This document shows positions 35,067-64,000 of a DNA stretch of 64,000 nucleotides, piece by piece. Under the pieces are notes generated by a model. The model did no database searches, was not told where the DNA came from, and saw nothing but the letters and a program-made list of their open reading frames with translations. Position 1 is the first letter of the stretch; each line of letters begins with the position of its first letter. The stretch is from a virus. The translations under genes were made by a program, and so were the position numbers. The stretch is taken from IMG/VR virus record IMGVR_UViG_3300036770_007495, positions 160,704 through 224,703 of that record. One strand, given 5' to 3'.

Positions 35067-35159
35067 ATGGCAAAAATACAACGAGTAAAAGAAGTGGTGC
35101 GCAAGGGCGTTCGCATTCGCAAAACTGTCACAGTTACAACCAAGCGAGTCAAAAAGTAA
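35067..35159 (+). CDS. 30-residue highly basic peptide
   Basis: A 30-codon frame starting MAKIQRVKEVVRKG and ending TTKRVKK fits exactly between dUTPase and clamp loader. It begins 4 nt after the dUTPase stop and overlaps the next start as TAATG. About 12 of 30 residues are Lys or Arg. This tight packing is the pattern of true genes here. A nucleic-acid-binding or host-enzyme-modulating peptide is possible; the family is not recognised. Confidence 0.55.
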   Translation: MAKIQRVKEVVRKGVRIRKTVTVTTKRVKK

Positions 35160-36091
35160 TGTCTAAACTAGATGGATTGTGGGTTGAAAAATATCGACCC
35201 AAAACATTGAATGAGATGTGCTTGAATGAAGACATCAAGCAGCTCATCATCAATTACACCAACAAGCAGGAGATTCCCAACCTGTTGCTTGTTGGCAAGC
35301 CTGGCATTGGCAAAACAAGTCTTGCGCGCATCATTGTGCAAGACTTGCTTCAATGTCAGTATCTTTACATCAATGCTTCAGATGAAAATGGCATTGATAC
35401 AGTTCGTGGCAAAATCATGAACTTCGCGCAAACCAGAAGCATTGATGGCAAAATCAAAGTCATCTTGCTTGATGAGGTGGATGGTTTCTCTGAACAAGGT
35501 CAAAATGCATTGCGCAACACCATGGAAGAGTATGCCAAGTATACTCGCTTCATCTTGACTGCAAATTATTTGCATCGCATCAAGCCTGCACTGCAGAGTC
35601 GTTGTCAAAGCATCCATGTTGAATCTTCTCTTGTGGATGTTGTGAAGCGCTGTGCAAACATCTTGAAGCAAGAGAACATCAAGATTGAAAACAGTGATAC
35701 CAAAGCATTTGGCAACATCATCAAGTCTCTGTATCCTGACATTCGCAAAATCATTGGCAATTTGCAGCGCATGTGCTCTTCAGGAGTTCTTGTGGTGTCT
35801 CAAAGCAATGATGCTGATGTTGCCAAGGATGTGTTGCAGAAAATCATTGCCAAGACTGATTGTGTTGCATTGAGACAGTTCATCATCAACAATGAAGATG
35901 AATTTGCAGCAGATTACAACAATTTGCTGAAAAATATGCTCAATGCAGTGTATTCACATGAGCATTTGCTAGATGCACAAAAACAGATGCTAATTTGCAT
36001 CATTGCAGAGCACTTGTATCGCGCTGCATTTGTCATGGATCAGGAAATCAATGCATTTCATTGTTGCCTGAACATGCTCAACATCACTTGA
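35159..36091 (+). CDS. gp44: Sliding clamp loader ATPase (gp44-like)
   Basis: A 310-residue protein; T4 gp44 is 319. LWVEKYRPKTLNEM (7-20), Walker A GKPGIGKTS (46-54), Walker B LLDEVD (103-108), sensor-1 region FILTANY (131-137) and the SRC motif (147-149) identify an AAA+ RFC/gp44 clamp-loader subunit, which opens the gp45 clamp on DNA. Gp62 and gp45 are not visible in the window. Third gene of the dUTPase operon; its end overlaps the convergent 36084 gene by 8 nt. Confidence 0.95.
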   Translation: MSKLDGLWVEKYRPKTLNEMCLNEDIKQLIINYTNKQEIPNLLLVGKPGIGKTSLARIIVQDLLQCQYLYINASDENGIDTVRGKIMNFAQTRSIDGKIKVILLDEVDGFSEQGQNALRNTMEEYAKYTRFILTANYLHRIKPALQSRCQSIHVESSLVDVVKRCANILKQENIKIENSDTKAFGNIIKSLYPDIRKIIGNLQRMCSSGVLVVSQSNDADVAKDVLQKIIAKTDCVALRQFIINNEDEFAADYNNLLKNMLNAVYSHEHLLDAQKQMLICIIAEHLYRAAFVMDQEINAFHCCLNMLNIT

Positions 36092-36647
36092 GATACTTTA
36101 CGTACTCTTTAGCAGAAGATGCTGGGATTTTCTCGTTTTTATCAGCGAGAGAGTCATCAGCATCTTTTAGTTTGCCACCTTGATCAGTCATGCGTGTCTG
36201 CTTGTAGGTGTCTGTGTTGGCATCCATGACAACTGGCTCAGGCTTGAGAGTTACCATGTTGTCTCTCTTGAGAGCAGCAGGAAGTGGTGCATAATTGACA
36301 CCATAATCAAGACGCTGCATCAAATCACATGGAACTGTGATGGCATTGTAATAGCGACCACCACCATAATCAATGGCAATGTCAAGCACTGCTTGGCCGT
36401 TCATATTGAACTCATTGCCAGGTGCTCTGGAAGGATATTCATTCTTAACAGCAACAACACGAAGATTCATTTCTTTGCCCATGTCTGCAATGCTGTCAAC
36501 AGCCTGCTGCATAGTGGGTGTCATTTCCTTGTAGCACTTGGTAGATTTGTAGTTGTCAGCAAATTTAACATAATCACCCATCAAATAGCCTCCGATTTGA
36601 TAGCGCTTTTGTGTATTCTCCAAGAGATCTAGATATTTGCTTTTCAT
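36084..36647 (-). CDS. Hypothetical late protein
   Basis: A 187-residue protein. I chose the second of two ATGs (36645-36647, MKSKYLDLLENTQ) because it is 6 nt from the late promoter while the first would touch it. IGGYLMGDYVKFADNYKS (~16-33) and a mid-protein FNMNGQAVLDIAIDYGGGRY are notable. The C-terminus is charged. Resembles uncharacterised conserved proteins of T4-like environmental phages in general style; function unknown. Confidence 0.6.
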   Translation of the reverse strand: MKSKYLDLLENTQKRYQIGGYLMGDYVKFADNYKSTKCYKEMTPTMQQAVDSIADMGKEMNLRVVAVKNEYPSRAPGNEFNMNGQAVLDIAIDYGGGRYYNAITVPCDLMQRLDYGVNYAPLPAALKRDNMVTLKPEPVVMDANTDTYKQTRMTDQGGKLKDADDSLADKNEKIPASSAKEYVKYLK

Positions 36648-36653
36648 CAACAT

Positions 36654-36660
36654 TATTTAT
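36654..36660 (-). promoter_or_regulatory. T4-like late promoter (ATAAATA), 6 nt before the ATG at 36647
   Basis: Sits in a 5-bp palindrome (AACAT/ATGTT, 36649-36663) and is divergent from the gp25 promoter 11 nt away. Confidence 0.75.
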
Positions 36661-36663
36661 GTT

Positions 36664-36693
36664 ATTGGCTGCTAAATAATAGCAATGGCCAAT
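36664..36693 (+). repeat. 11-bp inverted repeat with the gp25 start codon as a bulge
   Basis: ATTGGC-TGCTA pairs with TAGCA-GCCAAT around a 5-nt loop. The three bases left unpaired are exactly the ATG at 36685-36687. The late promoter lies across the loop. Confidence 0.75.
36672..36678 (+). promoter_or_regulatory. T4-like late promoter (CTAAATA), 6 nt before the gp25 ATG
   Basis: CTAAATA on the plus strand, inside the 11-bp inverted repeat. Confidence 0.75.
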
Positions 36694-37161
36694 GTTAATA
36701 TTGTGTTTCCCAAAGTGGAAAAAGTGAATGAAAATTTCACGTATTCTGACTTGCATCTTGATTTGCAAGTGCAGCAGCTTGTAACCAATGAATCTGCTAA
36801 ACTCATGCAACAGCAAGACGTTGTAGCAGATTATGATTTGGGAGCAATTCGCAACAGCATCATCAACATCTTTCTCACTTCACCTGGTGACAAACTGCTG
36901 AATCCAGAATTTGGCATTGATTTGAGAGATTATTTGTTTTTGGCTGTATCTGATACAGTTGCAGCCAGCATCTATGATGACATCTACAACAACATCACTC
37001 GTTTTGAGCCTCGCATTGCTCTCAACAAGCTTCAAGTGATTCCTGATTATGATAACCAGCAGTACACGATAAATATGTCTATAAGTGTTCCATTGTTGAG
37101 GGTTGATGAGTACATTCTGAACTTGTACCTCAACAGTGAAGGATACGTTGTATTTGCATAA
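36685..37161 (+). CDS. gp25: Baseplate wedge protein (gp25-like)
   Basis: A 158-residue protein; T4 gp25 is 132. The core AIRNSIINIFLTSPGDKLLN followed by PEFGIDLRDYLF (~52-86) is the gp25/GpW-family signature, also shared with type VI secretion TssE. It joins gp6 and gp53 at the inner wedge and starts sheath polymerisation. Followed after 2 nt by gp6. Start codon lies in a strong inverted repeat, hinting at late-only translation. Confidence 0.9.
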   Translation: MANVNIVFPKVEKVNENFTYSDLHLDLQVQQLVTNESAKLMQQQDVVADYDLGAIRNSIINIFLTSPGDKLLNPEFGIDLRDYLFLAVSDTVAASIYDDIYNNITRFEPRIALNKLQVIPDYDNQQYTINMSISVPLLRVDEYILNLYLNSEGYVVFA

Positions 37162-47121: not shown

Positions 47122-47128
47122 TATTTAT
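47122..47128 (-). promoter_or_regulatory. T4-like late promoter (ATAAATA), 6 nt before the ATG at 47115
   Basis: ATAAATA on the minus strand; presumably drives the five-gene fibre/glycan unit down to 41547. Confidence 0.8.
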
Positions 47129-54950: not shown

Positions 54951-57617
54951 TTATTTATTTGTTGATGCAACAACTCTTTCGTACAAGCCAAAGAAACCAT
55001 GCTTTGGCTTTGGTTTGTAGTGATCAAACAATGCTTGTTGCTGATGTTGTTGTAGCTCAGCAAAAGAAGATGTATTGCGAAGCGTATTTCCATCCAGATA
55101 ATACATCAATCCAGATCCATTGATGGCCACCGGAGTGCCATTCAAATCACCTTTGATCAAGGTTCTCCCACCCAATTTGAATCCTTTGTTGCGCATTTCT
55201 GCTTGTGCATTGGCAATATCACGCTCACCAAAATTTATAAACAACAATTGCGGCTTAAATCCTGCATTGATGAGCATTGCAATGTTTGGCAACATTTGCT
55301 GAAAATCAGCTGAATCGTAACCATTGCCTCTCAGAGAAATCATTTTTTGAATGTTGTCCATGGATGCAGGCACCATGAGTGATCTACCAAATGAATTTCG
55401 CAATAAATCATTGTTGCCAAATGCAAGTTCAGGACGATTGGCAATCAATTCATTGTTGGATTGTGCCTTGAGATCAGCAAAAAATCCGCGGCGCTTGTCA
55501 GCAATGACATACTTTTGACTCAGTTTGATTTTGGCAATTTTGGGATACATTCTGCCAAAATCAGATGATGGATCAATGATGGCCATGAGCTGTGCAAAGT
55601 GTGGTGCAACTTTGTTGATGAATTTTTTGTTGCGATTTACATATGCAGAAATTTCATCATTGTTCATGATGGCATTGGCAGCTCTAGTGACTACACTTGA
55701 TGGCTTGCGGGTGATGCTGTTGTCAATTGCAGTGACTATTTTTTTGATGCTTGTTTCTCGTGGCAAGTTTAATTTTGCAGCAATATCAAACAACCCTGTG
55801 ATGGTATTTGCATTTACTTCACCGCGCACATCTGCTGTGAGTCTGTTGGTGATGCTTTGTGCATACAAGTCAAATAGTTTTTGCTTGTTTTCGGGTGTTG
55901 AATTTTCAATGTATGTAGCAAAGCTGTCTAGTACTTGTGGTGAGCTAGCAATGATTCCTTTTGGATCTTTCCAGTTGAATGCACCACCCATGCTCATGTA
56001 ATAGCTGAATGAATCATTGATTGCTTCTACTGCAGCTTTGTACTCATCAAATCGTCTATCAGACTTGTTGATGGTACCCATCAAAGCTTTGACGCCAATT
56101 GCAACTCCCTGAAGCACATCAACGTTGATTGTTGCATCAAAATACAAGCGCTCTTCTTCCACAAGCTTTGCTATTTGAGAAGCAATTTTTTTGCCAAGTT
56201 CAGGTCTGTATGCATAAACCACAGGCAAAGATTCACTAATGAATTTGATGAGCTTATTGAAGCCTTGTGCATCATTATCAAGCAAATCCGTATCTTGTGG
56301 GAATGATTGCTTGAATGAATCAATCAAAGATGGAATGTATTGTGCAGCATATTTTTCATAGCTAAAATCAGTACCCACAAGACTTGATTCATGCATGCTC
56401 ACTAGTGATTTGAACAATGGCGCAAAAGATGCAATTTTTTTGCCTGGATAGTAGTTGCGCAATGACATCAAACCAATGCCAACTTGTGCCTGATAATCTG
56501 CTTCGTTGATCATTTTGTTGGTTTTGATGCCACACAACTTTGTAGCAAATGTAATGTTTGATGGAACCTGCACATCAGTTAACTTTGAAACTGATTCAAG
56601 ATCTGGCATTCTCACCAAAAATCTGACATAATCATCATACCGATAATGACCTGTTGGCCACTTAACACCATAATTATAAAATGCAGAACTGCCACTGGCA
56701 ATGCGGTCAAATGATACTTTAAACGCATTGGCAATGATGGGTTCATCATTGCTATGATTCAAAAAGAAATCCAAAATAGCTTCATAAGAAGCTGGTGACA
56801 TGGTGTATACAGAGTTGGAGTGATTGAATCTATTCTTAATTTCTGCTGCACTGTAACCATGTGAAGGTTTGGGTACAATGGCATAGTCCATGAACCCATA
56901 CACATCAACTGCAACCCAGCATGGATAGTAGTTGGGCATGAGAGGCAAGCACCAATAACCACTGCATCTTTCTGATCTACCGCTGGTAAAAAAGTCAGGA
57001 TCCTTTTTTGGATCTCTGTTGCCCATCAAAATTTTTGCTGCATCTGCTGAATCAACTCTAAAAAATTTATACATTGAGTTGGCATACACCTCATCAACAT
57101 TGTTTTCTTGAAAAGCAGCAAGAGTTTTTTGCAAATTTGGGTGAGTAGCTTGTTCAAAGTCATATCTGCGGGTGATGTATGCATCCATTGCAGCAATGAG
57201 ACCAGGCAGTGGTTCTCCTTGTCTGTCCTTGACATTTTCATCAGGATAAAAGACTTTGAAGCTCATCAAGTCTTTGCTAACTTCAGGATTGTTGCGTGCA
57301 GTCTGTACGCGATATACATTCAATGCTTCACGTGCTGCTGGCGCCTGATCTGGCGTAACATTGCCAGAATACAAATTGGCCATGATGAAATCCAAATAGC
57401 GGGAATCACCATTGAGTGCACCTGTTTGCGCATTTGTTGTTACATTGTATGTTGGATCAAATGATTTAGCAATGTTGTCAATGAAAGTTTCCTTGGGTAA
57501 TGTTGCTGCACCACCAAAAATGCCATGAGTATAATTATTATACAATTCTAAAAATTTCGGATCTTTGAGAATTTTGTTTCTTTTGGATGCGTAATCTTCT
57601 AATAACAAGTGAACCAT
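54951..57617 (-). CDS. Unknown 888-residue late protein
   Basis: Not recognised. Starts MVHLLLEDYASKRNK. Mostly alpha-helical looking, with a Cys/Trp-rich patch RCSGYWCLPLMPNYYPCWVA (~218-237) and a GVKWPTGHYRYDDYVRFLVR segment (~325-345). The C-terminal ~60 residues (GSGLMYYLDGNTL ... HGFFGLYERVVAS) are distinct. Size, late promoter and isolated position suggest a virion or ejected internal protein; an enzyme cannot be excluded. Its promoter lies in a perfect 10-bp inverted repeat with the start codon in the arm. Confidence 0.6.
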   Translation of the reverse strand: MVHLLLEDYASKRNKILKDPKFLELYNNYTHGIFGGAATLPKETFIDNIAKSFDPTYNVTTNAQTGALNGDSRYLDFIMANLYSGNVTPDQAPAAREALNVYRVQTARNNPEVSKDLMSFKVFYPDENVKDRQGEPLPGLIAAMDAYITRRYDFEQATHPNLQKTLAAFQENNVDEVYANSMYKFFRVDSADAAKILMGNRDPKKDPDFFTSGRSERCSGYWCLPLMPNYYPCWVAVDVYGFMDYAIVPKPSHGYSAAEIKNRFNHSNSVYTMSPASYEAILDFFLNHSNDEPIIANAFKVSFDRIASGSSAFYNYGVKWPTGHYRYDDYVRFLVRMPDLESVSKLTDVQVPSNITFATKLCGIKTNKMINEADYQAQVGIGLMSLRNYYPGKKIASFAPLFKSLVSMHESSLVGTDFSYEKYAAQYIPSLIDSFKQSFPQDTDLLDNDAQGFNKLIKFISESLPVVYAYRPELGKKIASQIAKLVEEERLYFDATINVDVLQGVAIGVKALMGTINKSDRRFDEYKAAVEAINDSFSYYMSMGGAFNWKDPKGIIASSPQVLDSFATYIENSTPENKQKLFDLYAQSITNRLTADVRGEVNANTITGLFDIAAKLNLPRETSIKKIVTAIDNSITRKPSSVVTRAANAIMNNDEISAYVNRNKKFINKVAPHFAQLMAIIDPSSDFGRMYPKIAKIKLSQKYVIADKRRGFFADLKAQSNNELIANRPELAFGNNDLLRNSFGRSLMVPASMDNIQKMISLRGNGYDSADFQQMLPNIAMLINAGFKPQLLFINFGERDIANAQAEMRNKGFKLGGRTLIKGDLNGTPVAINGSGLMYYLDGNTLRNTSSFAELQQHQQQALFDHYKPKPKHGFFGLYERVVASTNK
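54952..54958 (-). promoter_or_regulatory. T4-like late promoter (ATAAATA), 5 nt before the ATG at 54946
   Basis: ATAAATA overlaps the TAA stop (54951-54953) of the 888-aa gene. Likely drives the membrane peptide and the sugar-nucleotide genes. Confidence 0.75.
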
Positions 57618-57638
57618 GCATGTATTTATGCATGGTTC
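57611..57638 (-). repeat. Perfect 10-bp inverted repeat spanning a late promoter and ATG
   Basis: GAACCATGCA (57611-57620) and TGCATGGTTC (57629-57638) flank an 8-nt loop holding most of the ATAAATA motif. The start codon (57615-57617) is inside one arm. It lies between the early operon ending at 57669 and the late 888-aa gene. Confidence 0.8.
57623..57629 (-). promoter_or_regulatory. T4-like late promoter (ATAAATA), 5 nt before the ATG at 57617
   Basis: ATAAATA on the minus strand in the loop of the 57611-57638 inverted repeat. Confidence 0.8.
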
Positions 57639-57668: not shown

Positions 57669-57917
57669 CTACTTGTTTTGAATCTTGATGAGGTGTTCTA
57701 CGAGATCTGCAACTCCATCCTTTTCAAGAATCACCTGATCACCATATGGAGAACCTTCAAACAGAATTCTCCAGCACCAGCGCAATCTTTGCCGCAATGT
57801 TGCTTTGTGTGTATTTTGCATTTCCCAAATGGAAAACTCTGTTTGTTCAAGTTCATCATCATAAGCAACGCGAAGAATTTCGCTGCTGCATGCGCATTTG
57901 AAGTATTGTTCTTTCAT
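57669..57917 (-). CDS. Hypothetical early-type protein
   Basis: An 82-residue protein with an N-terminal CACS and a basic centre (RQRLRWCWRIL), not recognised. Overlaps the YopX-like gene by 4 nt. Last gene of the compact early-type unit; no obvious terminator follows before the late 888-aa gene, so read-through is likely. Confidence 0.6.
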   Translation of the reverse strand: MKEQYFKCACSSEILRVAYDDELEQTEFSIWEMQNTHKATLRQRLRWCWRILFEGSPYGDQVILEKDGVADLVEHLIKIQNK

Positions 57918-58390
57918 TTTAGCAGTTTGGGGTTTTCAAAGATGTTGCCGATGACCTCATATCTATGAGTTGCACTAGTCATATTTTCAATATCATCATA
58001 TCTCTTGTGATCATAAGACCAGCAAAAGCTTGGAAAAAGGAAAATAATTTCACCAACAAAGTCGCCATCTTCGATGAGCTCTGAAGTAAAAACACCTTTT
58101 GAGGTTTCGATGCTTTTAGAATGGCATCTGCTATACTTGACAATGTCGCCTTCGTAAATTTCTTTTCCGTTTTTGTCTTTCAGCCCGGTGTATTGCTGGA
58201 TAACGCAAGTTGGCGCAGGCGATGCAGTGTATTTATCGCCATGATCGCCATCAATTGCACCAACATAATCAGTCAGCCTGCCTGTAAATGGGCAAATGCT
58301 CCAATTGCTGTAACAGTGCAAGGAACTACTGTTCTCAAGCCAAGTTTTGTTTTGTTTGTCCCAAATGCGAAATTTTAGTTCTCTATTCAT
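57914..58390 (-). CDS. YopX-family protein
   Basis: A 158-residue protein. I chose MNRELKFRIWDKQNKTWLE (58388-58390); the longer frame to 58549 would lie within the macro gene. ELKFRIWD at the start, then QQYTGLKDKNGKEIYEGDIV (~75-94) and a C-terminal YEVIGNIFENPKLL are the YopX domain pattern of many phage and prophage accessory proteins. Function unknown. Coupled to both neighbours. Confidence 0.85.
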   Translation of the reverse strand: MNRELKFRIWDKQNKTWLENSSSLHCYSNWSICPFTGRLTDYVGAIDGDHGDKYTASPAPTCVIQQYTGLKDKNGKEIYEGDIVKYSRCHSKSIETSKGVFTSELIEDGDFVGEIIFLFPSFCWSYDHKRYDDIENMTSATHRYEVIGNIFENPKLLK

Positions 58391-58895
58391 GCTTGCAAAT
58401 ATATACGTCGTTGAAGCTCTTTTCAAACGTTTTGTTGATAATTTCTTCCACAATGTTCCAATCGGCACCACCCAAACCGCAGCCGATTTTGTATGGAATG
58501 TAGATGTCTTGAAGTTCGTTTCTAATATCTGGCAAACCCATAATTCCAAGGGTTTCGATTGCTATATCATTGCCTAAAAATGTTGTATTTGCGATTCTTT
58601 TAAATCCTGCAATAAGAGCAGAGTATTCTGTTTGCCTTTCTCTGGTACCAACATTGTTCTGACCAAAAAGATTAGCGACAATAACATTATGAGCTACATT
58701 TACTTCAAACACGCTGCCTAACAGCATAATGGGAAGCTTTTGACGCTTCACATGATCGCGGTATTCTTCTGCGTTTTTGGGCCATTTGCGTGCAATTGCG
58801 CCTGCCAATCCCCCAACTGCACCAAGACAGTTAACAGAGTGAACAATAACGCCTTTATCTACTGTTAAAATGTCTTTGTTAATTGTTGTTATCAT
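58383..58895 (-). CDS. Macro domain protein (ADP-ribose-1''-phosphatase-like)
   Basis: A 170-residue protein. VHSVNCLGAVGGLAGAIARK (18-37) is the ADP-ribose binding loop of macro domains and IPYKIGCGLGGADWNIVEEI (133-152) the second phosphate loop. The family removes the 1''-phosphate from ADP-ribose or cleaves ADP-ribose from proteins and nucleic acids, and is known to counter ADP-ribose-based defence or recycle tRNA-splicing by-products. Member of the early-type unit, overlapping YopX by 8 nt. Confidence 0.88.
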   Translation of the reverse strand: MITTINKDILTVDKGVIVHSVNCLGAVGGLAGAIARKWPKNAEEYRDHVKRQKLPIMLLGSVFEVNVAHNVIVANLFGQNNVGTRERQTEYSALIAGFKRIANTTFLGNDIAIETLGIMGLPDIRNELQDIYIPYKIGCGLGGADWNIVEEIINKTFEKSFNDVYICKHE

Positions 58896-58898
58896 ATT

Positions 58899-59180
58899 TT
58901 AAAAAGGTTCATTTACAATTTCTACATCAAATTCATCACAACCACAAAACTCACCATCCCATCTCTCTCCTTTTCCAAAGATTTCGATTTCATATTCGAG
59001 TTGTGTATTGCGAAGTCCGCGAACACATATTGCTTTCATACCTGGAAAATTAACACAGCTTTCCCATTCGTCAAGTGAAACTCTTTGAAGTTGTTCAGGT
59101 GCATTGCAATTGTAATCATATACTTCTGTTCCTTCTTTGAACCAAGTGTCAGGCTTTGCTGTTAGTTTGACGAATTTCAT
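58899..59180 (-). CDS. Hypothetical protein
   Basis: A 93-residue acidic protein (MKFVKLTAKPDTWFKEGTEV). Start at 59178-59180 overlaps the stop of the 27-codon frame upstream (ATGA), favouring it over the earlier in-frame ATG at 59207. Contains FGKGERWDGEFCGCDEFDV. Domain not recognised. Confidence 0.55.
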   Translation of the reverse strand: MKFVKLTAKPDTWFKEGTEVYDYNCNAPEQLQRVSLDEWESCVNFPGMKAICVRGLRNTQLEYEIEIFGKGERWDGEFCGCDEFDVEIVNEPF

Positions 59181-59260
59181 AATTTTGATCTTTGTTTGTC
59201 TATCCACTCGGAAATAATTTCCGCAATTTTTAAACCAATATGTAATAAAAACAATGGCAT
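59177..59260 (-). CDS. 27-residue hydrophobic peptide
   Basis: Short frame beginning MPLFLLHIGLKIAEIISEW with a basic tail KQRSKL. It starts 3 nt after the preceding stop and ends with an ATGA overlap into the next gene, filling an otherwise unexplained gap. Amphipathic, possibly membrane-associated. Too short to judge by composition alone. Confidence 0.4.
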   Translation of the reverse strand: MPLFLLHIGLKIAEIISEWIDKQRSKL

Positions 59261-59263
59261 AAT

Positions 59264-59539
59264 TTATTCTTTAATAGGCCATTCAAACATATTAAGATGA
59301 AAGAAAGCGTCACTCAATCCTTCACCTTCTAACCACACTGCACACCATGAAGAGTAAACTTCACAATAGCGAACAGTATAGATTTTTCCAACCTCTAAGT
59401 TGTCTTTGGCAAATTGAATGACATTGACAAAGTGCGGATAAAACATTCCATCAGCACCTTTGAATCTTACTTTATGACCTTTACAAGGCCATCTGCTATC
59501 TTTATTTTCAAAAAGAGCAAAAAATTGTTCGTCGTTCAT
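59264..59539 (-). CDS. Hypothetical early-type protein
   Basis: A 91-residue protein. RWPCKGHKVRFKGADGMFYP and KIYTVRYCEVYSSWCAVWLE look like an SH3-like small barrel. Overlaps the upstream gene by one base (TGATG). Not recognised. Confidence 0.55.
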   Translation of the reverse strand: MNDEQFFALFENKDSRWPCKGHKVRFKGADGMFYPHFVNVIQFAKDNLEVGKIYTVRYCEVYSSWCAVWLEGEGLSDAFFHLNMFEWPIKE

Positions 59540-59871
59540 CAGCAGTAGGTTTTTGTGTCAGCAACACTGCAAACAGTTGTTCCTAACTCTGGTGGTGGTG
59601 ATCCTGTGCCGTCACTGCAAATGATTTTGTGCGGATCAAATCCTGGATATGTCGGCATGGGAGCATAAGGAGGGTATTTTGGATATTCTGTATCTTTTGG
59701 CCTCCTTTTTTCCCATTCTTCTTCTTTCTTTTCTTTGCGAATAGGAGTTTTCTTCTCAAACAGCAAGGTCAAATGATCTCTGATGATTTGAGTCTGTTCT
59801 TTATTGATGGTTTCTGCATTGGAAATCTCAAGAAATCCATGCAACCATATTGCGAATTGTTCGTAGTTCAT
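59539..59871 (-). CDS. Conserved hypothetical phage protein
   Basis: A 110-residue protein. MNYEQFAIWLHGFLEISNAE followed by TINKEQTQIIRDHLTLLFEK is a pattern I recall from short proteins found in many T4-like phages. A Lys/Glu and Pro/Tyr-rich linker leads to a C-terminus with CSDGT...CSVADTKTYC. Function unknown; member of the early-type unit. Confidence 0.65.
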   Translation of the reverse strand: MNYEQFAIWLHGFLEISNAETINKEQTQIIRDHLTLLFEKKTPIRKEKKEEEWEKRRPKDTEYPKYPPYAPMPTYPGFDPHKIICSDGTGSPPPELGTTVCSVADTKTYC

Positions 59872-59874
59872 AAT

Positions 59875-60198
59875 TTATTCGTCTCTCCAGCGTTTGTTAG
59901 GAATACCTCGTTTATCTGCAACATATTGTGCTACACCATCATACCCATCTCTGCGATACATTTCAAAAAACTTTGCAATGTCACATGTTGGTAGATTTTC
60001 AGCATCAGCAGCAGGCGCAAAGTAATCGTTGATGTTGATGTAAAGATTGATGGTACCATCTCCATAATCATTGCCAACGAACAATATACTTTCATCCAGA
60101 AGAAATGCAACCATGCTTTCAACATCTGCATGAATGCCAAGATTATGCTCAGTCAAGTCAATGTAATAAGTGCGATCAATGGTAATGGTTTCAGTCAT
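59875..60198 (-). CDS. Hypothetical protein
   Basis: A 107-residue acidic protein (MTETITIDRTYYIDLTEHN). Start at 60196-60198 gives the 8-nt overlap with the release-factor gene that is typical of this unit. It contains NLYININDYFAPAADAEN and ends GIPNKRWRDE. Not recognised. Confidence 0.55.
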   Translation of the reverse strand: MTETITIDRTYYIDLTEHNLGIHADVESMVAFLLDESILFVGNDYGDGTINLYININDYFAPAADAENLPTCDIAKFFEMYRRDGYDGVAQYVADKRGIPNKRWRDE

Positions 60199-60589
60199 GT
60201 CGTTCTGTTTCTTGGTATTCAACCCATTTGCCTTTTTCATCTTTCATCTCAATTTTGAGATTGTCAGGGTGCATGTCTCGCTCCACTGCATCTTCAACTC
60301 TCTGCTTGCGCAGTTTTGCTTCTTCAGCAGATTCAAGTCGGCGACTTGTTTCAAGCTTCAGCCACAATTGAAACTTTTCTGAATTGGCCATTCGCCTGAA
60401 TGCTTCAACTTTGTTGCGTCGTTGTTCGCGGTGGTCACGAGAGATGCCTTCTGCACCACTTGCCTTGTGGCGGCAGCGACAAGCAGATGCAGTTTTGTTT
60501 TGATGCTGACCGCCTTTGCCACCAGCACAAAAATACATCCAGTCGCAATCATCCGCAGTAACACTGAAAAGTAATTCTTTATCACTCAT
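60191..60589 (-). CDS. Release factor-like GGQ domain protein
   Basis: A 132-residue protein. CAGGKGGQHQNKTASACRCR (21-40) carries the GGQ motif (26-28) that triggers peptidyl-tRNA hydrolysis, followed by a basic helix (RDHREQRRNKVEAFRRM). It has no codon-recognition domain, so it is like ArfB/YaeJ or mitochondrial ICT1-type rescue factors. It may free ribosomes stalled during infection. Start chosen at 60587-60589 (MSDKELL). Confidence 0.85.
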   Translation of the reverse strand: MSDKELLFSVTADDCDWMYFCAGGKGGQHQNKTASACRCRHKASGAEGISRDHREQRRNKVEAFRRMANSEKFQLWLKLETSRRLESAEEAKLRKQRVEDAVERDMHPDNLKIEMKDEKGKWVEYQETERHD

Positions 60590-61109
60590 TGTTTTTCTTA
60601 CTATAGAGTTTATCCCATTCTTTGTCAACTGCATTCAAAGCATCGTGGGCAAGCTGCGCCAAATGTTGTCTCAAAATATTACCATCATCTAAATTATAAT
60701 TAGATGCAATATCTCTCAAAGCATTATGCATAATATCCCACTGATTTTGGAAGCATTCATAATCTTTTAAATTGATTTCACCGTATTTGCATTTGACTGC
60801 TTGACAGTTGGTGGGAGAGCAGCAGCCAGTCTCACCACAACTACCGCAAGTTTCGCAGTAGTTAGAATCTTCTGGATAATTGTCAGGGTCACAAATTAGT
60901 GGTCTGACTTGATTATTGTCAGTGAACTCTGCAACGATTTCTTCTTCAAGAAAAAAACAAACTTCTTTAGAAGTGGGGATTATAAATCCGTAACAAATTT
61001 CGCCTACGATCTCTACCTCTCCCGTAAAAACTCCCTCACCCATGTAACGATTGTAATCGTATGGGCCTTGGCAGTTGATCATGTATTTTTTGTCTTTGAT
61101 TGGAATCAT
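60582..61109 (-). CDS. Cys-rich hypothetical protein
   Basis: A 175-residue protein. Between residues ~80 and 108 eight cysteines occur in a cluster (CETCGSCGETGCCSPTNC), suggesting a zinc or metal site. The C-terminal part is helical (LRQHLAQLAHDALNAVDKE). Domain not recognised. Starts 1 nt after the upstream stop and overlaps the GGQ gene by 8 nt. Confidence 0.6.
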   Translation of the reverse strand: MIPIKDKKYMINCQGPYDYNRYMGEGVFTGEVEIVGEICYGFIIPTSKEVCFFLEEEIVAEFTDNNQVRPLICDPDNYPEDSNYCETCGSCGETGCCSPTNCQAVKCKYGEINLKDYECFQNQWDIMHNALRDIASNYNLDDGNILRQHLAQLAHDALNAVDKEWDKLYSKKNNE

Positions 61110-61110
61110 A

Positions 61111-61701
61111 CTATTGTTTAACTGGTTTATATCCTTCGTAAATGCTTTCTTTCAAAAGATCAGGTGAGAGGGTTTTGTACCAACCACCTCGAACGCAAAG
61201 AACACCAGGCTTGCCAGTTACTTCGCAAGTCTTGTTGCACAAATACTCAGCCATGTGAATCATGCCACGAACTTGCTCATCACCGCCTGAGATGTAAAAA
61301 CGAAGCTCGCCATATTTTTCTTTGATTTGATCAATCTTTACAGCAGGTGGATAAACTTTGTCATATTCAACACACTTGTAAGAACGACGACGAAACTTCT
61401 CAATGAAAGCAAAAACTGGTTTATTGAACTGCCACTTGTTGAACTGCGGAAACAGTTTGATAAACTTCCTGTGCATCCAATCTAGAGATTCAGCAATGCT
61501 AATCCAAACGTAATACATCTTGTTAACTACTCTGCGCTTGTGGCGATATGTATGCTTGGTGTAGCTTGTGATTGAGCCGCACAAGTCAGCTACAATCTGC
61601 TTCCATCCATTGGGTACCCATGCACCGCATGGGCAGGGATCACCTTTTTCATAAAAGAGGTGAGGATACTTGAGCACAAGATACTCTTCAAACTGTTCCA
61701 T
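61111..61701 (-). CDS. Conserved hypothetical phage protein
   Basis: A 196-residue protein. GDPCPCGAW near the N-terminus and PAVKIDQIKEKYGELRFYIS (~137-156) followed by CNKTCEVTGKPG resemble a widespread unnamed phage protein (recall). Basic middle region. First gene of the long early-type unit running to 57669; a sigma70-like promoter lies directly upstream. Confidence 0.65.
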   Translation of the reverse strand: MEQFEEYLVLKYPHLFYEKGDPCPCGAWVPNGWKQIVADLCGSITSYTKHTYRHKRRVVNKMYYVWISIAESLDWMHRKFIKLFPQFNKWQFNKPVFAFIEKFRRRSYKCVEYDKVYPPAVKIDQIKEKYGELRFYISGGDEQVRGMIHMAEYLCNKTCEVTGKPGVLCVRGGWYKTLSPDLLKESIYEGYKPVKQ

Positions 61702-61706
61702 GCATT

Positions 61707-61734
61707 AATATGCATTCAAACAGACAGAAGTCAA
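61707..61734 (-). promoter_or_regulatory. Sigma70-like promoter for the early-type unit
   Basis: TTGACT (61729-61734 on the minus strand), a 16-nt spacer and CATATT (61707-61712), ending 5 nt before the ATG at 61701. A TATTAA at 61705-61710 with an 18-nt spacer is an alternative -10. Confidence 0.5.
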
Positions 61735-61737
61735 CAA

Positions 61738-61772
61738 AAAAAGAGAGAAGTGTTGCCACTTCTCTCTCTTGA
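61738..61772 (-). terminator. Rho-independent terminator after the lipoprotein gene
   Basis: Read on the minus strand, GAGAGAAGTG / CACTTCTCTC with a 4-nt loop is followed by a T-run. Confidence 0.85.
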
Positions 61773-61802
61773 TCTTACTTGGTCTTACTTGGTCTTACTT
61801 GG
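61773..61802. repeat. Tandem 10-bp repeat over the lipoprotein stop
   Basis: Three near-identical 10-bp units of the form GGTCTTACTT. Each unit carries AAGTAA on the minus strand, so the stop codon at 61795 is repeated downstream. Confidence 0.8.
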
Positions 61803-62061
61803 ACGGTTGAGGTGTTCCCACCTCTACAATTGGTCGCCGAGGAGCATACCTGATGCCTGCAGTGAATGAACCATAAGGTTCAACACCAAAGACGTTGGTA
61901 GAGGCATGCCCACTCACCTGATATCCCTTTTCAACCTTTTCAGTTGAGAAGCCAACGGATGCACCTGTGCGTGCCTGATCAAGTGCTGCATCAGTTGTGC
62001 TCTTGACAGAGGTGCAGCTGACGAGACCCATGAGCATTGTTGCTAGTAGTAGTGTTTTCAT
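61795..62061 (-). CDS. Small outer-membrane-type lipoprotein
   Basis: An 88-residue protein. MKTLLLATMLMGLVSCTSVK is a lipoprotein signal with lipobox LVSC, so Cys16 should be lipidated. Mature ~73 residues include GYQVSGHASTNVFGVEPYGS and a Pro-rich end. Position among early genes but with a late-type promoter (TATAAATT, 5 nt before the ATG). A spanin-like lysis role or superinfection exclusion are both possible; no partner spanin was seen. Confidence 0.7.
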   Translation of the reverse strand: MKTLLLATMLMGLVSCTSVKSTTDAALDQARTGASVGFSTEKVEKGYQVSGHASTNVFGVEPYGSFTAGIRYAPRRPIVEVGTPQPSK

Positions 62062-62090
62062 GTTGTAATTTATAATACGTTCAACAAAAA
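62055..62090 (-). repeat. Imperfect inverted repeat around late-type promoter and ATG
   Basis: TTTT-TGTTG pairs with CAACA-AAAA on the minus strand over 9 bp; the two unpaired bases are TG of the ATG at 62061. The promoter motif lies in the loop. Confidence 0.55.
62067..62074 (-). promoter_or_regulatory. Late-type promoter (TATAAATT), 5 nt before the ATG at 62061
   Basis: One mismatch from TATAAATA, at the preferred distance. It sits at the boundary of early-type genes. Confidence 0.55.
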
Positions 62091-62324
62091 TCAAGCTTCT
62101 GTTCCATTGATGTAAGAACTCTCATTGGTGAAGATGTTCTTAATTTTTACCAAGACAGCAGGCTTTGCAAAATCATCATCAAGAGATTCTGCGAACCATG
62201 CATGACCTTTTGGGGAGCTTGCATCAGTCCAGTATTTGCCAGTCTGCCCATAATTGAGCGTAGGGTGGCTGCGGGTGAAGATGCACCCTATTCCGTTGAT
62301 GTAATTTGTGTTTTGTTTATGCAT
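62091..62324 (-). CDS. Hypothetical protein
   Basis: A 77-residue protein (MHKQNTNYINGIGC). It contains SPKGHAWFAESLDDDFAKPA. Start at 62322-62324 overlaps the phosphoesterase stop by 8 nt. Not recognised. Confidence 0.55.
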   Translation of the reverse strand: MHKQNTNYINGIGCIFTRSHPTLNYGQTGKYWTDASSPKGHAWFAESLDDDFAKPAVLVKIKNIFTNESSYINGTEA

Positions 62325-63030
62325 AGTGGTAACCGTAGTGTTCATCGATGTTGAGGCACCTAAAGACTGTATCACCATGAGTGATCAGATTGCTCTCATG
62401 AAAGTGTCCATAAATCCAGTCTTTGGGTTTGGTTTTCTCATAAAGATAATCAACCAATTGACTTTCTTCAATGAGATCATTTTTCAGATCAGCATCTTGA
62501 TTACACCAGCTTTCAATTTTGCTGAAGCCTTTGAATGCTCCACAGACACCTGGTCGTGTATGTGTCACAACCAAGTCATATTGGCGATCTTTGTATGGGA
62601 AGTCATTTTCAAGTTTGAGATTAAATCCCTCATCACTCCACCAAGACTTGCCTTCTGTACGCCAAGTACGATCAATGCTCACTGCACCACCCACAAGCAG
62701 GATGCTCTTGCCCAGCAGCTCTAGTTCGGAGTAGTCTTGCAGCAGAGTGATGTTGGAGAAGTCAAATGGATTATTGGTCTGCTTGAAGTATTCAGGATCA
62801 TCATGATTGCCGCGAATGGCATACAGATGACAGTTTTTATTTACCAACAGTTCATTGAGTCTTGGAAAAGCTTCATTCTTGTAGTAGTTGGGCTTGTGAA
62901 ATCCTACGCCAAAATCACCCACTTGAATGATGTATGCATCTTCATAACCAAGACGATTGATGTCATAGCGCAGTTTGTTGTACTCGCCATGAATATCGCC
63001 TACCAGGATGATTTTATCTTTTTCTTTCAC
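62317..63030 (-). CDS. Calcineurin-like metallophosphoesterase
   Basis: A 237-residue protein. The motif series GDIHGE, GDFGVGF, RGNHDDP, VVTHTRPG and YGHFHES is complete for a di-metal phosphoesterase. Substrate unknown: in phages such enzymes act on protein phosphates, nucleotides or RNA ends. The start is GTG at 63028-63030, supported by a near-consensus promoter ending 6 nt before it. Confidence 0.9.
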   Translation of the reverse strand: MKEKDKIILVGDIHGEYNKLRYDINRLGYEDAYIIQVGDFGVGFHKPNYYKNEAFPRLNELLVNKNCHLYAIRGNHDDPEYFKQTNNPFDFSNITLLQDYSELELLGKSILLVGGAVSIDRTWRTEGKSWWSDEGFNLKLENDFPYKDRQYDLVVTHTRPGVCGAFKGFSKIESWCNQDADLKNDLIEESQLVDYLYEKTKPKDWIYGHFHESNLITHGDTVFRCLNIDEHYGYHYA

Positions 63031-63036
63031 AGATGT

Positions 63037-63065
63037 ATTATAGCTTCTTATTCAAATTTTATCAA
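63037..63065 (-). promoter_or_regulatory. Near-consensus sigma70 promoter for the phosphoesterase gene
   Basis: TTGATA (63060-63065), a 17-nt spacer and TATAAT (63037-63042) on the minus strand, ending 6 nt before the GTG. Transcription should begin at the start codon itself. Confidence 0.8.
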
Positions 63066-63260
63066 CTACTTTTCTAAATGAAAGTCATTCATGACATAAT
63101 CCCACAAGTAGTCATCATGTTGCTTCTTGCCATCAGAAACCTGCTTCAAAAGCATGTCCCAGTGTTCGTCAATTTCTTTTTGCAAGAACTGAATATGATT
63201 TTTGTAGACCTCTACTAACGCAATTTCTTGTTTGTTGTATGTGCGAGTTCCTAGTTTCAT
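63066..63260 (-). CDS. Small hypothetical protein
   Basis: A 64-residue helical protein (MKLGTRTYNKQEIALVEVYK) with many charged residues. Overlaps the phosphatase gene by 4 nt. Not recognised. Confidence 0.55.
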   Translation of the reverse strand: MKLGTRTYNKQEIALVEVYKNHIQFLQKEIDEHWDMLLKQVSDGKKQHDDYLWDYVMNDFHLEK

Positions 63261-63691
63261 TTGATCATAAGATAATTGTGCAACATTATGTCGTTAGGAC
63301 TTGGCATTAGTTTGTCGGGAATTCTTGCATCATAGAGCTCTTGTTTTGCATCATGGATAGTTTTTCCATCACGCTCGCATTTTGCGATAACAACTGCTGC
63401 AGGACTGCGACTATATCCGGCAAAACAATGAACCAGCAAACGTTCATGAGGAGCAAGGCTGTGAATAAAATCAAGCAGCTTGCGAATGTGTCCTTCATTG
63501 GGTGCATATTTTGCGTCTTTGGGATTGACTGCTAGTGATCCAAATGTTTCATCTTCAAAGTCAAGAAACATATACTTCTTGCCTTCACGAAATTTTTCAG
63601 GCATGAAATGTCCGAGAGAGATTACTGCGTCATATTCATGCGCATATTTCTCTGCATTAGCAAAATCGGTGTAGTGGTTAATCGTTGTCAT
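63257..63691 (-). CDS. Dual-specificity/tyrosine protein phosphatase-like protein
   Basis: A 144-residue protein. VHCFAGYSRSPA (87-98) contains H-C89-x5-R95-S, the cysteine-phosphatase P-loop, and FLDFEDETFG (~42-51) may supply the general acid Asp. Compact DSP fold. It may reverse host protein phosphorylation. Start MTTINHYTDF (63689-63691) gives a 14-nt overlap with the upstream gene; a longer frame is less likely. Confidence 0.85.
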   Translation of the reverse strand: MTTINHYTDFANAEKYAHEYDAVISLGHFMPEKFREGKKYMFLDFEDETFGSLAVNPKDAKYAPNEGHIRKLLDFIHSLAPHERLLVHCFAGYSRSPAAVVIAKCERDGKTIHDAKQELYDARIPDKLMPSPNDIMLHNYLMIK

Positions 63692-63935
63692 GAAATGGTT
63701 CTTTGCCAATGTGGTCGTATCTTTCAGAAACTCCAGCATTAAAAATAGCTAAGATTTCTTGTTCAAATGCAATTTGATCAGAATCAGCAATCTTGTCAGT
63801 CAAAGTATCTAAAATGTTGATGAGTATGCCAGCAACACCTTTTGGAGTTGCATCAAACGATTCAACGATTCTAGTACCAACTCGACCTTTTTGTTCGTCA
63901 AGGTAGATGCTAATTACATGAGTCCAGTCTTGCAT
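63678..63935 (-). CDS. Hypothetical protein
   Basis: An 85-residue protein (MQDWTHVISIYLDEQKGRV). I placed the start at 63933-63935, 1 nt after the stop of the preceding partial gene. It contains ESFDATPKGVAGILINILDT. Not recognised. Confidence 0.55.
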   Translation of the reverse strand: MQDWTHVISIYLDEQKGRVGTRIVESFDATPKGVAGILINILDTLTDKIADSDQIAFEQEILAIFNAGVSERYDHIGKEPFHDND

Positions 63936-63936
63936 A

Positions 63937-64000
63937 TTAATGTCCAAAAGCTTCAATGGTATACTTGAAAGGATTGCCTTCAATGTTTTTGACAAGATCA
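63937..64000 (-). CDS. C-terminal end of an unidentified gene (partial)
   Basis: An open frame entering from the right edge ends KYTIEAFGH followed by TAA at 63937-63939. Its position immediately before the next gene shows it is a real gene end; nothing more can be said. Confidence 0.5.
   Translation of the reverse strand, partial: DLVKNIEGNPFKYTIEAFGH

What the first reader, a model, noticed from the sequence alone, without database searches (positions are those of the whole stretch)
36664..36693. gp25 start codon is the only bulge in an 11-bp hairpin around its late promoter
Seen: ATTGGC-TGCTA and TAGCA-GCCAAT pair perfectly apart from the three start-codon bases, with the late promoter across the loop. 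Known: in T4, genes e and soc have hairpins that hide the ribosome site in early read-through RNA but not in late RNA. Inference: here the same logic is built around leaderless starts, because RNA begun at the late promoter lacks the upstream arm.
Basis: partly seen in the sequence, partly recalled or inferred. Interest (0 to 1): 0.78.

Follow-up and report, generated by a model that had tools for sequence, protein, structure and literature searches.

The report
Leaderless phage gene with unconserved hairpin
The hairpin around the start of this phage's baseplate gene is really there but is not kept by its relatives, whereas the predicted leaderless late start is kept very widely, and a different gene in the same window carries a promoter-spanning hairpin that evolution has preserved by matched changes on both arms.

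Summary
The reading for gp25 is not supported. The closest relative (85% identical protein) keeps promoter and start but has two uncompensated changes in the upstream arm; more distant relatives keep the promoter while the outer helix is lost (pair counts equal shuffles). Predicted masking of the start is no stronger than with shuffled upstream sequence (p=0.33).

Two parts of the idea survive. (1) The leaderless late start is well supported at sequence level: TAAATA-N5-ATG occurs 42 times against 5 in the control, and box and gp25 start are 11 nt apart in 49 of 79 related loci, where T4 late RNA would begin. T4, KVP40 and Syn9 lack this peak. (2) The T4 gene e logic fits another gene here, the 888-aa gene 54951-57617(-): its 11-bp hairpin spans the promoter, takes in the AUG, and is kept in three lineages with four two-sided compensations plus wobble pairs, directly downstream of a co-directional array of early-type genes. 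The endolysin is a weaker case.

The parts
36664..36674 (+). upstream arm of the reported hairpin (ATTGGCTGCTA)
   Evidence: sequence; not conserved
36673..36678 (+). late promoter box TAAATA of gp25
   Evidence: kept in 67 of 79 related loci within 9-17 nt of the start
36684..36684 (+). predicted late transcription start (+1), one base before the ATG
   Evidence: inferred from T4 late-promoter geometry (own knowledge); not mapped
36680..36693 (+). downstream arm TAGCA + bulged ATG (36685-36687) + GCCAAT
   Evidence: sequence
36685..37161 (+). gp25-like baseplate wedge gene, 158 aa
   Evidence: PF04965; PHROG 261
36654..36659 (-). late promoter box of the divergent gene, back to back with that of gp25
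   Evidence: kept in relatives
36084..36647 (-). divergent gene of unknown function; conserved start is ATG 36647 (12 nt after the box)
   Evidence: cluster 10; no Pfam or PHROG match
35159..36091 (+). clamp-loader (gp44-like) gene, nearest possible source of read-through RNA into gp25
   Evidence: PHROG 168
57611..57638 (-). promoter-spanning hairpin GAACCATGCAT/ATGCATGGTTC that takes in the ATG; covaries in relatives
57623..57628 (-). late promoter box TAAATA in the loop of that hairpin; predicted +1 is 57617, the A of the ATG
   Evidence: +1 inferred
54951..57617 (-). 888-aa gene of unknown function
   Evidence: no curated Pfam, PHROG function or PDB match; model poor
57914..63995 (-). array of small early-type genes on the same strand upstream of the 888-aa gene
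   Evidence: ORFs; same arrangement in G001, G004, G006; early type inferred from content

Best explanation
gp25 is a leaderless late gene: a T4-type late promoter box sits 12 nt before its start codon, so late RNA should begin one base before the AUG. The hairpin at 36664-36693 is a lineage-specific, probably neutral inverted repeat and not a maintained translation switch. Shown here: anatomy, fixed promoter-start spacing, lack of conservation at gp25, covariation at the 888-aa gene. Inferred: the transcription start, the timing of expression and the translational effect.
For: gp25 pairing not kept while the promoter is; structure not better than shuffles. Fixed spacing: 42 against 5 control matches, 42 against 4 in G001, 49 of 79 gp25 loci at 11 nt, no such peak in T4, KVP40 or Syn9. 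888-aa gene: 97.7% of cells paired, 4 pairs changed on both sides, covariation 0.606 against at most 0.182 when slid; only one of 43 ortholog clusters above the null maximum (16.2 against 10.0); three G-U pairs in G003/G004; early-type genes upstream on the same strand. T4 precedent in PMC3014915 section 29.
Against: Two promoter-centred hairpins in one window against 0.19 expected, and G001 also folds the gp25 start region fairly well with other pairs (-10.3 kcal/mol; p 0.01-0.04), so a recent gp25 switch is not excluded. The 888-aa covariation rests on three lineages. No RNA 5' ends are available.
Confidence: 0.68

Rival explanations
1. The gp25 hairpin is a genuine, recently evolved T4 gene e-type switch limited to this lineage: it silences gp25 in RNA reading through from the clamp-loader gene.
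For: Perfect 11-bp pairing with the start as bulge; clamp-loader gene on the same strand upstream; location on a promoter is unusual; G001 also folds this region, with other pairs.
Against: Two uncompensated changes in G001 and no outer helix further away; opening cost p=0.33; about 570 nt, including a whole antisense gene, separate the clamp-loader gene from gp25.
Confidence: 0.2
2. The palindrome is a DNA element, for example a binding site for a dimeric regulator shared by the two back-to-back late promoters, or an aid to promoter melting.
For: All 11 pairs are Watson-Crick and one arm lies between two divergent late promoters.
Against: Not kept in relatives that keep both promoters; no recurring palindrome sequence at other promoters. 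At the 888-aa gene the G-U pairs favour RNA.
Confidence: 0.06
3. It is the counterpart of the stem at the T4 gene 25 initiation region, which brings a distant Shine-Dalgarno site close to the AUG and activates translation.
For: Same gene; [quoted passage not shown]
Against: Here the promoter box itself lies in the loop and the stem takes in codons 2-3, so late RNA would lack the 5' arm. The review states that distant T4 relatives lack the stem.
Confidence: 0.02

Closest known systems
T4 gene e (lysozyme), soc, 49 and I-TevI inhibitory hairpins (PMC3014915, section 29)
   Same: Hairpin over a translation start in long early RNA, with the late promoter in the DNA of the 5' arm region so that late RNA lacks that arm. 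Fits the 888-aa gene and possibly the endolysin here.
   Different: T4 starts keep a leader with a Shine-Dalgarno site; here the predicted +1 is the start codon, so the late message would be leaderless. At gp25 the helix is not conserved.
T4 gene 25 split initiation region stem (PMC3014915, section 29)
   Same: Hairpin at the start of the same gene.
   Different: The T4 stem lies between Shine-Dalgarno and AUG and activates; this one would enclose the promoter and the AUG.
T4-type late promoters (TATAAATA)
   Same: Same core box TAAATA ahead of structural genes.
   Different: In a 49-kb T4 stretch the box-to-ATG distance peaks at 30-35 nt; here at 11-12 nt. Pelagibacter phage HTVC008M shows the 11-nt peak (8 sites), KVP40 and Syn9 do not.

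Membership tests
T4 gene e-type inhibitory hairpin, at gp25 (36664-36693) | helix that takes in or flanks the start codon in read-through RNA | tested here: met
   opening cost 6.6 against 1.1 kcal/mol in RNA begun at +1, though not above shuffles
T4 gene e-type inhibitory hairpin, at gp25 (36664-36693) | helix kept in relatives that keep the late promoter | tested here: not met
T4 gene e-type inhibitory hairpin, at gp25 (36664-36693) | long early RNA reads into the gene and is poorly translated | not testable with these tools
   needs RNA mapping and reporters
T4 gene e-type inhibitory hairpin, at the 888-aa gene (57611-57638) | helix takes in the start codon, with the late promoter placed so that late RNA lacks the 5' arm | tested here: met
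   +1 inferred
T4 gene e-type inhibitory hairpin, at the 888-aa gene (57611-57638) | helix kept by compensating changes in relatives | tested here: met
   three lineages
T4 gene e-type inhibitory hairpin, at the 888-aa gene (57611-57638) | source of early read-through upstream on the same strand | tested here: inconclusive
   gene order fits in four genomes; expression time inferred
T4 gene e-type inhibitory hairpin, at the 888-aa gene (57611-57638) | measured repression of read-through RNA | not testable with these tools
   needs reporters
Leaderless mRNA | promoter spaced so that +1 is at the start codon | tested here: met
Leaderless mRNA | mapped 5' end at the start codon | not testable with these tools
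   needs differential RNA-seq

The most novel reading that the evidence does not exclude
A group of T4-like phages has rebuilt the T4 gene e switch for leaderless late mRNAs: at selected genes exposed to early read-through (the 888-aa gene, the endolysin, a 378-aa gene, a GroES-like gene) the DNA just upstream of the late +1 encodes an arm that pairs over the AUG, so the same start codon is closed in early RNA and becomes a free 5'-terminal AUG in late RNA.
Probability: 0.35. Interest if true: 0.68.

Novelty: new variant of a known kind. Interest (0 to 1): 0.45.

Why it matters
T4 late genes have leaders with Shine-Dalgarno sites. A widespread group of environmental relatives appears to start late RNAs at the AUG itself, which leaves a read-through hairpin as one of few cis-acting ways to keep a late protein off early in infection. 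The 888-aa gene and the endolysin make this directly testable. For gp25 itself the lesson is that a striking hairpin seen in one genome is not evidence of a switch.

Tried and rejected
Permuting upstream segments among starts gave a strong signal in this genome (p=0.0001), but dinucleotide shuffles of each upstream segment gave little (5 of 62 at p<=0.05 against 3.1 expected; 7 of 62), and G001 and G004 showed none, so I do not claim a genome-wide design. A first permutation test let the TAAATA box pair and was replaced. An AlphaFold2 model of the 888-aa protein was too poor to search (pLDDT 49). Wider profile scans for more orthologs of the 888-aa and 378-aa genes found no new lineages. Endolysin relatives L215-L220 lack the promoter box and the hairpin. 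Papers on pelagimyophages and phage AR9 do not describe this architecture; the former reports that late-promoter prediction failed in its phages. The held library is only part of the literature, so absence there is weak evidence of novelty.

Full report
What was checked. The finding describes an 11-bp hairpin at 36664-36693. The sequence is ATTGGC-TGCTA-AATAA-TAGCA-[ATG]-GCCAAT, so the pairing, the coordinates, the lone bulge and the promoter box TAAATA (36673-36678) are as stated. The gene is gp25-like (PF04965, 1.7e-13; PHROG 261).

Is it more than chance? Hairpins of this quality occur 21 times in the window against 10.1 +- 3.0 in shuffles; two of them are centred on a TAAATA box where 0.19 are expected. 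The location is therefore mildly unusual. As a structure it is ordinary: z about -2, and the cost of opening the start in read-through RNA (6.6 kcal/mol) is reached by a third of shuffled upstream sequences.

Is it conserved? The closest relative, L001 (gp25 85% identical), keeps TAAATAATAGCAATGGCCAAT exactly but has ACTGGCTGTTA as upstream arm: one mismatch, one G-U, no compensation. L002-L005 (64-65% identical) keep the promoter and not the pairing. Over six lineages the outer helix is 47% paired and all covariation measures equal shuffles. Among 26 non-redundant related gp25 starts the promoter stays and fold energies run from -10.3 to 0. A caveat is that G001 folds the same region with other pairs, so a young, lineage-specific switch is not excluded.

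What is conserved. Late starts in this phage sit at a fixed 11-12 nt from TAAATA. TAAATA-N5-ATG occurs 42 times in the 224.7-kb record against 5 for the reversed pattern, and 42 against 4 in G001. At gp25 the spacing is 11 in 49 and 12 in 8 of the 67 loci with a promoter, out of 79 loci, and some of these starts are GTG. By the geometry of T4 late promoters (own knowledge) this puts +1 at the start codon. Long ORFs of the window rarely carry a Shine-Dalgarno-like motif (2 of 52), against 25 of 39 in a T4 stretch; T4, KVP40 and Syn9 lack the 11-nt peak, while HTVC008M shows it. Low motif frequency alone is not decisive, since Syn9 also shows few.

Where the switch idea does hold. The other hairpin centred on a promoter, 57611-57638 on the minus strand, belongs to an 888-aa gene of unknown function (54951-57617). 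Orthologs in G001 and G003/G004 keep the helix with different letters: GAACCATGCAT/ATGCATGGTTC, GATCCATGCA/TGCATGGATC and TTGATGTGCAT/ATGCATGTTAA. Four of 11 pairs show two-sided change and 97.7% of cells pair; sliding the partner by one to three columns drops the covariation score from 0.606 to at most 0.182 (G003 and G004 are near-identical there, so three lineages count). Of 43 ortholog clusters this is the only one above the whole null distribution (16.2 against a maximum of 10.0 in 1015 mismatched pairings). Three G-U pairs in the G003/G004 version point to RNA rather than DNA. A fourth, distant lineage (G006) has a 6-bp stem of unrelated sequence over the same promoter, not significant alone (p 0.08-0.28). 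In all four genomes small genes of early type lie directly upstream on the same strand, the setting in which early RNA could read through. Predicted opening cost of the start in G000 and G001 is 12.2 and 14.2 kcal/mol in read-through RNA and 0.1-0.2 in leaderless RNA.

Weaker cases. The endolysin (Amidase_2, PF01510) has a promoter-spanning hairpin in this genome and in G006 (p 0.02-0.07 by dinucleotide shuffle), but not in G010 or in L215-L220, and G001 lacks the TAAATA box there. A 378-aa gene has the strongest single hairpin in the genome (gain 17.3, p=0.007), and its G001 ortholog has an unrelated one that also takes in the AUG. A GroES-like gene is similar. These are leads, picked from about 60 starts.

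How it most likely works. For gp25: late RNA begins one base before the AUG and is translated as leaderless RNA; the hairpin is incidental (about 0.7 likely). For the 888-aa gene: early RNA reading through from the upstream array folds with the AUG inside the stem; late RNA starts at the AUG, lacks the upstream arm and is open. This is the T4 gene e principle (PMC3014915, section 29) applied to a leaderless start. Anatomy and covariation are shown; transcription start, timing and translational effect are inferred.

Noticed in passing
window TAAATA sites; whole record; L001-L084: Late promoter box and start codon are 11-12 nt apart at most late genes, implying leaderless late mRNAs across many environmental T4-like phages, including GTG starts at the predicted +1.
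   Followed up: yes
57611-57638 (-): Covarying promoter-spanning hairpin at the start of the 888-aa gene, downstream of an early-type gene array on the same strand.
   Followed up: yes
L210:2142-2918 (-) and L213:1402-2172 (-): Endolysin (Amidase_2) start lies in a promoter-spanning hairpin in this genome and in distant G006, but not in other relatives.
   Followed up: partly
L207:212 and L241:1495: A 378-aa gene has the strongest start hairpin of the genome; its ortholog in G001 has an unrelated hairpin that also takes in the AUG.
   Followed up: partly
36654-36678: Two late promoter boxes stand back to back, 13 nt apart here and 13-14 nt apart in relatives; the distance from the minus box to the gp25 ATG stays constant in the close relatives.
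   Followed up: partly
36647-36653 (-): The divergent gene probably starts at ATG 36647, not at the upstream in-frame ATG 36653, which lies before the predicted +1 and is absent in G002/G004.
   Followed up: yes
L231 (Pelagibacter phage HTVC008M, NC_020484 1-50000): A cultured phage shows the same 11-nt promoter-to-ATG peak (8 sites), so the leaderless prediction could be tested there.
   Followed up: partly
window around 47134: An 11-bp hairpin lies just upstream of the minus-strand late promoter at 47127 and does not cover the start codon; role unknown.
   Followed up: no
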